Positions 38,501-41,500 of a stretch of 64,000 nt of DNA are shown here, in pieces. The notes under the pieces are model-generated. The model did not search any database and had not been told where the DNA came from. It was given only the letters and a program-made list of their open reading frames with translations. Origin of the DNA: Owenia fusiformis (taxonomy: Eukaryota; Annelida; Polychaeta; Sabellida; Oweniidae); NCBI GenBank assembly GCA_903813345.2, contig CAIIXF020000009.1, positions 12,786,347-12,850,346 on the forward strand, read 5' to 3'. Within the stretch, counting starts at the first letter, position 1; every line of letters starts with the position of its first letter. Made by a program: the position numbers and the translations under genes.

Positions 38501-41500
38501 ATTTTCTACTTTGAAAGTATAAAAAGATTACTTTATTGACAAAGGAGATGTTTCACACCCTGGTAGTGTTCTATGACATCTTGAATCTTACAAAATACAA
38601 CTGGACGCAATAATATCTTTAGAGCAAATCTTCAAGGCATTCATAGTTTTATTACTATGGTGTCACAATATGTATAAAGAATTAGGATGAGTTGACATGT
38701 GGGTAATTGCAATTGCATGTCATCTCATCAGATTTTACATATGGAATGGGTGCCTCAATATTCAAGTTATATTTGATTAGATTGGACACAAATGATCTCG
38801 ATATATACAAAAATTTGTGTCAAACATATTTATGTATTCGACCTATATCATATTTATCTCAATCGAACTTGATAAAGTATGAAAAATCCTTTACGGAACG
38901 ACCTACCTAGACTTTGATTTTTCACGTTTGGATGTACGTAAACCGGGAAATAAGTAGAACAATATGACGTCACATCCTGAGAAAAACCTGCGCGCGCCTT
39001 CCCGTTCGCGGTTTACGTTGTAAAAAGTGGTGTTGCTTAACCTCTCTATTTTCGCTTCAAGACTGCAAAGTACAGCTCACTTTATTCATGTGGCTTAAAA
39101 ATACATTTCAAAACTGATTTTAAAATTCAGCAACTGACCAATCCAAACACGTTTTACTTTGCTTGCTACTCAGATACGTCGCATATATAAACACAAGGTT
39201 GTTATGTTTTTGTACAACTCTGAGCGTGGAAGGGACTAAGCAAAGACATTTAAAAATGTTGAACAAAATCGTACTAGGAGGCCTGACACTCGTTTGTCTC
39301 GTGAATATTGCAGGTTCTATTCCAACACGATCTAATCTATATAGGTATGTAGTATGTGTTATATAATATGTAAATGTATTGCAATTAGGCCAAAATTTAC
39401 AGTTTTTTTCTAGGCCTTGGTACATATTGGGAAATTTTCTGCATTCCTCAACTGAGTCACATGTTATTTTTCAAACAAGAATTATTGGAATTCCCTGTAA
39501 ATTACAAGAGGTCATTCACTGCACTTACAACTAAATTCATCTGAAATATACCAAAATTATTTTGCATATAAATATGAATGTTTTCCATGGAATATTATAG
39601 TCTCGTCCTTAGATTGCTTATATTATTTAGGTTTGATTGACACACAATCCCTTGGCTCGCACTTTACAGATCCACAAAATGTCTGATTCAAAATTCTATT
39701 GAGTACTTTTAATTAAACAAAATAAGCAATCAAATAACCATACTAACATTATACCTAACTATTTGAAATGTTTATTCAGACGAAGGATACAGTCTAGGTA
39801 TAATGTGCAGCAAAGCTGTGGCCTTCTGTCAATTTTTTCGAAATAACATGGCAGTGAAGCATCAAAATATAAGAGGCCGCGCATATGATATCCAAACTAC
39901 AAAACAAACTAAAATATACAAAAGGCCATGTATAAATGTTTATATTTTTACATATACTATTTCAATATGGTCCTTTGATTGCTTATTTTTTAGATTCAAA
40001 GTACTCACTGGAATTATGAATCAGACTTTATAGTTAAACCTGAGACTTGCATAAAAAGTAAATAATAGATTTGGGAAATAAATTGGACTGACCTAGAAAT
40101 CTTCTGTCTTGTGCTTTGTATATACCTGTATCTCCTTAACTAAATATGCAAATGATCGAATCAAAGTTATGTTTTGCTTGATTTAATTTAGGGAGATTCT
40201 CGGTTCCATAGCCTCGGCCATCACGGCTGAAATTCGTGAGGACCGTGAATTTTCGCAGGAATTGGAGATTTTGAAGAAAGGTGCAAATAGGCCCAAAGGA
40301 TATGGAATGACAGCTGAACTGGCAAATAAGGTAAGCGATGCTGTTTAATATCGTACTTGTCAATGTTCCGGATATGTGATTTCATGGAGTTTAAGGTTAT
40401 ATTGTTTTGTACAGTCCATTAAACTACTTCAAAGGCAAGCAGTTGAACCTGAAAAATAAGAAATCTAAAGACTATTGTCCAATAATATATAGAGAAATAT
40501 ATTCATAGAAATTGCACACGAATGACATATGTCTATATTGGATTGCTGCTTGTGAATTGACTTATAAAGTCTGTAACCTTTTATATTTTTATGCTTCTCT
40601 GCCATGTTAATTCTGAAAAAATAACATGGCGGATGGACCTCAAATTACAAGAGGGCACAGGTTTATTCTAAACACTAAATAATCTGAAATATACAAATGA
40701 AATTCATAAAATGTAAATTTTGCCACCAATTTCATCATTATAGCATGCGCAGAAGCAAATATACCTTTATCGTATTTCTGGTGGCCATTTTGGAAAATGC
40801 GTATATTTCAGATATAAAGTAAAAATTATTGTTTTCAAGACTCAAAACCTAATATGTGTAGATTTTGGCACTAAATCCATCATTGTATCATGCACAGAAG
40901 CAATGATATTACCCCTCTATCACACCAAACTAGTTCTTACCCGTTCTTGCCAGTCCTACGAAAATGTCGTAAAACGGGCTCAATCTGGCTGCGATCGGGA
41001 TATATGTCTAAAATAATTAGCTACTTCGTTCATAAACAGTCTTCAATACGTCCATCTCATTCGCAATTCGTTCAGGTCGCACCACGTTGGTGTGCAACGT
41101 AGTAAAAACTGTCCCTTAGTCTAGAAGGTCATCATGACCTGATTACAGAACGGTATGGTCGCCATCGAATTTTGAATCGATTCAAAATTCTAAATCACAT
41201 ACCCCGTCCGGGAAAGTCCATGAAGTTCGTAAACAGACCGTAGAACGTTGTAGCTACGTTCATACAGTTCGCACACAGTTTAAAACCAATTCGGCAAAGT
41301 TTTAACGATCACCAGAAAATTTTGAACCTGCTCTAAGTGCTGGAGGACCTACTCGTTCTAGTAGTTTAATGAAGTTTGTAAACAGATCCCAAACGGTTCT
41401 TGGTGGGTTCTTAGTACGTCAAATCCGTTCGTGCACAGTTTAAGCCAGTTTTCGAGAACGTAGTGACAACTAGTTTGGTGTGATAGTAGGGTTATATTGT

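What the first reader, a model, noticed from the sequence alone, without database searches (positions are those of the whole stretch)
39256..40330. A calponin that has acquired a secretory signal peptide
Calponin 2 starts with a TATA-driven exon encoding a hydrophobic leader ([16 protein letters not shown] core), spliced in frame to an exon that runs through a 29-residue linker straight into [13 protein letters not shown], the N-terminus of the cytoplasmic paralogue. The ancestral start codon is replaced by Gly, so the leader is the only initiation point for a full-length product. CH-domain/calponin-repeat proteins are known as intracellular actin binders; a dedicated secreted member would be new to me.
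Basis: partly seen in the sequence, partly recalled or inferred. Interest (0 to 1): 0.85.

Follow-up and report, generated by a model that had tools for sequence, protein, structure and literature searches.

The report
Calponin-like gene with secretory leader exon
A spare copy of a muscle-type actin-binding gene in an unidentified animal appears to have lost its own start codon and gained a new first exon that looks like a secretion tag, so a protein family known from inside cells may here be sent outside; no transcript or protein has been seen yet.

Summary
The window carries two calponin/transgelin-type genes. Calp1 (201 aa, 12833-21250) starts [10 protein letters not shown]. Calp2 (262 aa, 39256-44638) is identical at 169 of 201 aligned residues, with dN/dS 0.19. 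Calp2 lacks that start codon (Met replaced by Gly). It is open through an upstream exon, [21 protein letters not shown]..., spliced in frame, with TATATAAA about 70 bases upstream. Dinucleotide shuffles gave such a first exon in 4 of 300, and none with a TATA box. All three base changes in the ANRPKGYG codons are silent (P about 0.014), so sequence before the next Met is probably translated.

Homology to calp1 ends at the old start codon, and calp2 lies within the span of an antisense receptor guanylate cyclase gene. I read it as a duplicate that recruited a leader locally.

Secretion is unshown. Both leader splice sites score below the ten other introns, codon usage does not support the leader, and no trained predictor, RNA or related animal genome was available. 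Mussel shells hold calponin-family proteins; the best studied is reported to lack a signal peptide (PMC7530383). Secreted gelsolin is the closest precedent (PMC8320529).

The parts
39184..39191 (+). TATATAAA, 72 bases upstream of the start codon; putative core promoter
   Evidence: 47 such motifs in the window, 39 expected, so only its position speaks for it
39256..39344 (+). Calp2 exon 1: ATG and 29 codons plus 2 bases; signal-peptide-like leader [29 protein letters not shown]; donor TAG|gtatgt
40192..40282 (+). Calp2 exon 2, 5' part: Arg30, 29-residue linker, Gly60 in place of the ancestral Met
   Evidence: GC 0.495 against 0.299 and 0.363 in the two flanking introns; predicted mostly helical at low confidence
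40283..40330 (+). Calp2 exon 2, 3' part: [16 protein letters not shown], identical to calp1; Met69 at 40307
41825..41929 (+). Calp2 exon 3
42070..42137 (+). Calp2 exon 4 (CH domain)
43212..43323 (+). Calp2 exon 5 (CH domain)
43684..43776 (+). Calp2 exon 6 (CH domain)
44456..44638 (+). Calp2 exon 7: single calponin repeat, stop TAA
12833..21250 (+). Calp1, cytoplasmic-type paralogue: coding exons 12833-12883, 15578-15682, 16887-16951, 18068-18179, 20452-20544 (GC donor), 21071-21250
   Evidence: one search had its first base off by one

Best explanation
Calp2 is a functional duplicate of a transgelin-type calponin gene. The copy landed at a new site (inside the span of an antisense receptor guanylate cyclase gene) without the promoter and 5' end of the parent. 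It gained a new 5' end there: a TATA promoter, a leader exon and an open stretch in front of the old start codon, which then decayed to Gly. The transcript is translated from Met1 at 39256. The leader targets the chain to the ER and is cleaved near IAG|SIP or AGS|IPT. A roughly 40-residue, mostly helical extension follows, which could be trimmed after Lys58-Lys59. The CH domain and calponin repeat then enter the secretory pathway. Outside the cell it would most plausibly bind extracellular actin or another filamentous or mineral matrix, much as secreted gelsolin binds extracellular actin. Shown: the reading frame, homology, purifying selection, loss of the start codon. Inferred: the transcript, ER entry, cleavage, extracellular actin or matrix binding.
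For: Intact 262-aa frame over seven exons. CH domain 71.2 bits against cut-off 26, calponin repeat 29.7 against 21.1. 169 of 201 residues identical to calp1; 41 silent changes over 127.5 sites and 36 replacement changes over 475.5, dN 0.08, dS 0.42, ratio 0.19. ANRPKGYG codons differ by 3 bases, all silent, P 0.013-0.015: sequence upstream of Met69 is translated, so a start further upstream is needed. Signal-like first exon in 4 of 300 shuffles, with TATA in 0 of 300. Upstream flanks show homology at 5 of 5 other acceptors (P 0.002-0.042) but not before the start codon (P 0.89); the aligned block begins 4 bases before calp1's ATG. Precedent: PMC8320529 passages.
Against: Donor and acceptor score below all ten other introns, and acceptor 40259 (6.2) slightly outscores 40192 (5.9). 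Leader codon usage is unremarkable (44% of 1341 non-exon open frames score as high) and the linker is borderline (6%). The region downstream of exon 2 also lacks significant flank homology (P 0.28), which weakens the breakpoint argument. The actin-binding repeat is well kept, which is also what an intracellular protein would show. Only two copies, no relatives, no RNA.
Confidence: 0.55

Rival explanations
1. Calp2 is cytoplasmic: its real first exon is non-coding, spliced to 40259 or 40192, and translation starts at Met69, giving [13 protein letters not shown]... with a whole CH domain. The leader exon is a chance reading frame.
For: Acceptor 40259 scores 6.2. Calp1 has a short 5' untranslated stretch before its ATG in the matching exon. 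Leader codon usage is no better than non-exon frames. The actin-binding repeat is conserved.
Against: Three of three changes in the eight codons before Met69 are silent. A signal-like, phase-matched first exon with a TATA box was in 0 of 300 shuffles.
Confidence: 0.2
2. One gene, two products as in gelsolin: the leader exon gives a secreted form, and another promoter or leaky scanning gives a cytoplasmic form from Met69.
For: Two usable acceptors in exon 2 and an in-frame Met69. Gelsolin uses an alternatively spliced exon for the signal peptide (PMC8320529).
Against: No second promoter or first exon was identified. Calp1 already supplies the cytoplasmic form.
Confidence: 0.12
3. The leader is a signal anchor, so calp2 is a type II membrane protein of the secretory pathway rather than free.
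For: Hydrophobic stretch of about 17 residues with basic residues on both sides (sequence).
Against: The core is short, with small residues at -1/-3 of plausible cleavage sites.
Confidence: 0.08
4. Calp2 is a decaying duplicate with no stable product.
For: Original start codon lost; weak first-intron splice sites.
Against: No frameshift or stop in any of the seven exons; dN/dS 0.19, though a pairwise value cannot say which copy is constrained.
Confidence: 0.05

Closest known systems
Calponin/transgelin (SM22, myophilin) family of cytoplasmic actin-binding proteins; in the window, calp1
   Same: One CH domain and one calponin repeat, both above Pfam cut-offs; nearest solved structures are calponin-2 and transgelin-2; introns match calp1
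   Different: N-terminal hydrophobic leader and 29-residue linker; family start codon lost
[quoted passage not shown] passages seen)
   Same: Calponin-family proteins found outside cells; TLP-1 binds actin (KD 9.45 uM reported) and overlaps with actin on the inner shell surface
   Different: TLP-1 is reported to have no signal peptide, and its authors propose vesicular export. Whether the window comes from a mollusc is not known
Secreted (plasma) gelsolin (PMC8320529, passages seen)
   Same: An actin-binding protein that is exported through an exon encoding a signal peptide joined to an otherwise cytoplasmic core
   Different: Gelsolin makes both forms from one gene; here a separate duplicate appears dedicated. 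Unrelated fold (recalled)

Membership tests
Calponin/transgelin family | CH domain | tested here: met
   PF00307, 71.2 bits, cut-off 26, residues 86-204
Calponin/transgelin family | At least one calponin repeat | tested here: met
   PF00402, 29.7 bits, cut-off 21.1, residues 237-260
Calponin/transgelin family | Actin binding | not testable with these tools
   Repeat core NKGASQAG kept as in calp1; no assay
Calponin/transgelin family | Cytoplasmic, no leader (usual, not strictly defining) | tested here: inconclusive
   Leader present in the gene model; localisation unknown
Classically secreted proteins | n-region, hydrophobic core, small residues at -1/-3 | tested here: met
   Own rule-based filter, mean hydropathy of the best 10-residue core 2.53, site after residue 20; 44 of 528 open ATG frames also pass
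Classically secreted proteins | Positive call by a trained predictor; secretion shown | not testable with these tools
   No SignalP or Phobius, no cells
Gelsolin-like secreted/cytoplasmic pair | Signal-peptide exon spliced to an actin-binding core | tested here: met
   At sequence level only
Gelsolin-like secreted/cytoplasmic pair | Both forms made from one gene | tested here: inconclusive
   Alternative acceptor 40259 and Met69 exist; no RNA

The most novel reading that the evidence does not exclude
A dedicated secreted calponin/transgelin arose in one step of gene birth: a duplicate lacking its 5' end landed within an antisense receptor guanylate cyclase gene, recruited a promoter, a signal-peptide exon and a linker from local DNA, and lost its cytoplasmic start codon. 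It is now a secreted actin- or matrix-binding protein, possibly processed after Lys58-Lys59. It would give one route by which calponin-family proteins reach extracellular matrices such as shell.
Probability: 0.4. Interest if true: 0.7.

Novelty: new variant of a known kind. Interest (0 to 1): 0.5.

Why it matters
If true, this would be a calponin-family protein with its own signal peptide, and with the cytoplasmic parent retained nearby it would be a readable case of a duplicate gaining a new compartment. It would also make testable how some calponin-family proteins come to lie in bivalve shells: by signal peptide, or by the vesicular route proposed for TLP-1. None of my ten paper searches listed a secreted calponin with a signal peptide, but most listed papers were not opened and most subscription papers are not held.

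Tried and rejected
Relatives: no calponin relative was confirmed in viral contigs (5 pattern stretches, 0 confirmed) or genome contigs (26 stretches, 0 confirmed), as expected of collections without animal genomes. No whole genome is held for the window. Identifying the organism through a dispersed repeat failed: 0 matches in viral contigs, 1 in genome contigs, a bacterial contig taken as a chance or stray match and not opened.

N-glycosylation as a sign of secretion was rejected: calp2 has one sequon (N148 NLS) and calp1 none, but human calponins 1 and 2, shown, have N-x-S at the same place.

A stretch upstream of calp1 (12596-12616) resembles the calp2 linker (P 0.008 by simple shuffle). In one search, 10 of 380 blocks of the window scored as high, so I did not build on it.

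The ancestral N-terminus could not be checked against solved structures: no hit at E 10; the resemblance to transgelin-2's N-terminus is recalled only. RasGAP_C on the N-terminal 76 residues (15.6 bits, cut-off 26) is taken as chance. The sigma-70 promoter scan does not apply to an animal gene. The only structure job was on the contiguous exon 2 peptide (46 aa, mean pLDDT 64.4).

Full report
What was checked. The window is animal-like DNA of about 35% GC; no whole genome is held for it and the organism is not identified. Two calponin-type genes lie on the + strand. Calp2 has coding exons 39256-39344, 40192-40330, 41825-41929, 42070-42137, 43212-43323, 43684-43776 and 44456-44638 (262 aa). Calp1 has 12833-12883, 15578-15682, 16887-16951, 18068-18179, 20452-20544 (with a GC donor) and 21071-21250 (201 aa). 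Exon boundaries are inferred from reading frame and from the match between the two copies, not from RNA. tblastn of calp2 against the window found no third copy. Calp2 carries one CH domain (71.2 bits, cut-off 26) and one calponin repeat (29.7, cut-off 21.1). The closest of 16 solved sequences are calponin-2, transgelin-2 and calponin-1.

Is the leader real? The frame of exon 2 runs into a stop (TAA at 40184-40186) just above its acceptor, and no ATG precedes Met69 (sequence), so a full-length product needs an upstream exon. Exon 1 supplies it in phase 2. In 300 dinucleotide shuffles of 37000-40190, 4 contained a first exon of matching phase with donor >=5.5 and a signal-like leader, and none also had a TATA box in the right range. 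The filter and thresholds were chosen after seeing the candidate. By itself a signal-like leader is common: 44 of 528 ATG frames with at least 29 open codons pass, 21 of them in a low-complexity repeat at 56-58 kb. Splice signals are a weak point. On a matrix made from the ten other introns, the donor scores 5.6 (others 7.2-10.9) and the acceptor 5.9 (others 6.5-14.9), although 140 of 3520 GT sites and 123 of 3086 AG sites in the window reach these values. Another acceptor at 40259 scores 6.2, and calp1's own presumed first acceptor only -2.9, so the matrix may not suit first introns. Codon usage does not help: 44% of 1341 non-exon open frames score as high as the leader and 6% as high as the linker. 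The linker's GC content (0.495) exceeds that of the two flanking introns (0.299, 0.363).

Is the region before Met69 translated? The eight codons for ANRPKGYG differ from calp1 by three bases, all silent, including a two-base change within an Arg codon. Random changes would leave the peptide intact with probability 0.013-0.015. This is the best single argument against a cytoplasmic product starting at Met69, though it rests on three changes. Over all 201 aligned codons dN is 0.08 and dS 0.42 (ratio 0.19).

Where did the new 5' end come from? Homology between the copies runs 21-53 bases into the intron upstream of exons 3 to 7 (P 0.002-0.042 in 5 of 5). At exon 2 it begins 4 bases before calp1's ATG, and the 80 bases before the start codon show none (P 0.89). 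Downstream flanks are significant in 3 of 6 (exons 3, 5, 7; exon 2 P 0.28, exon 4 0.058, exon 6 0.068), so the contrast is suggestive, not decisive. On the other strand, one receptor-type guanylate cyclase gene seems to span the site. Its ligand-binding domain matches at 50798-51088 (profile 81-129) and 34866-35210 (276-325, 18.8 bits, below the cut-off 25.4). Its kinase-like domain matches at 29679-29831, 28951-29220 and 26941-27237 (the last below cut-off), and its cyclase domain at 24805-25095. The order is collinear, so calp2 (39256-44638) probably sits in one of its introns, while calp1 lies outside. Two candidate exons between (45809-46027, 35322-35561) gave no Pfam match, so a single gene is an inference.

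How it most likely works. The leader reads as n-region MLNK, core [12 protein letters not shown], and a cleavage region VNIAGS with small residues at -1 and -3. The extension after it is predicted as two helices at low confidence (mean pLDDT 64.4) and ends in Lys-Lys, a possible convertase site (recalled rule). Cleaved forms would be about 26.7 or 22.2 kDa. The calponin repeat is kept, so the likeliest extracellular role is binding actin or another matrix polymer. Secreted gelsolin shows that an actin binder can be exported by a signal-peptide exon (PMC8320529, passages). Mussel shells contain many calponin-like and transgelin-like proteins (PMC4517812, 12 of 23 places seen; PMC6641155, 12 of 14 places seen). 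TLP-1 of Mytilus coruscus binds actin and overlaps with it on the inner shell surface, but is reported to have no signal peptide (PMC7530383, passages). That paper notes that finding cytoskeletal proteins in shells is controversial. Whether this window is molluscan is unknown.

Verdict. Observation confirmed; interpretation partly supported. The protein belongs to the calponin/transgelin family by domain content. The secretory leader is a well-motivated prediction. Most likely a secreted or ER-targeted variant (0.55), with a Met69 cytoplasmic product as the main rival (0.2).

Noticed in passing
24805-51088, - strand: Pieces of a receptor-type guanylate cyclase (ANF_receptor, kinase-like, cyclase domains) in collinear order; calp2 appears nested in one of its introns on the opposite strand.
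   Followed up: partly
20544-20546: Calp1 exon 20452-20544 ends in a GC donor (AAG|gcaagt); calp2 has GT at the matching place.
   Followed up: no
38021-38288 and 18391-18537: A dispersed element with internal inverted symmetry (GGAGCAAATGTGACCAAGGC...), two tandem units upstream of calp2 and another in calp1's intron; not found in viral contigs, one stray match in genome contigs.
   Followed up: partly
40912-41494 and 19035-19846: Repeat copies shared by an intron of each calponin gene, one 381-base pair of stretches 90.6% alike in inverted orientation.
   Followed up: no
54613-55714 and 61345-62398: Two arrays of about three units of 352 bases each; the consensus units as printed start differently.
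   Followed up: no
56288-57908: Long degenerate low-complexity array (ATGTTCACTA / ATGCTAC units) that yields many false signal-like reading frames.
   Followed up: partly
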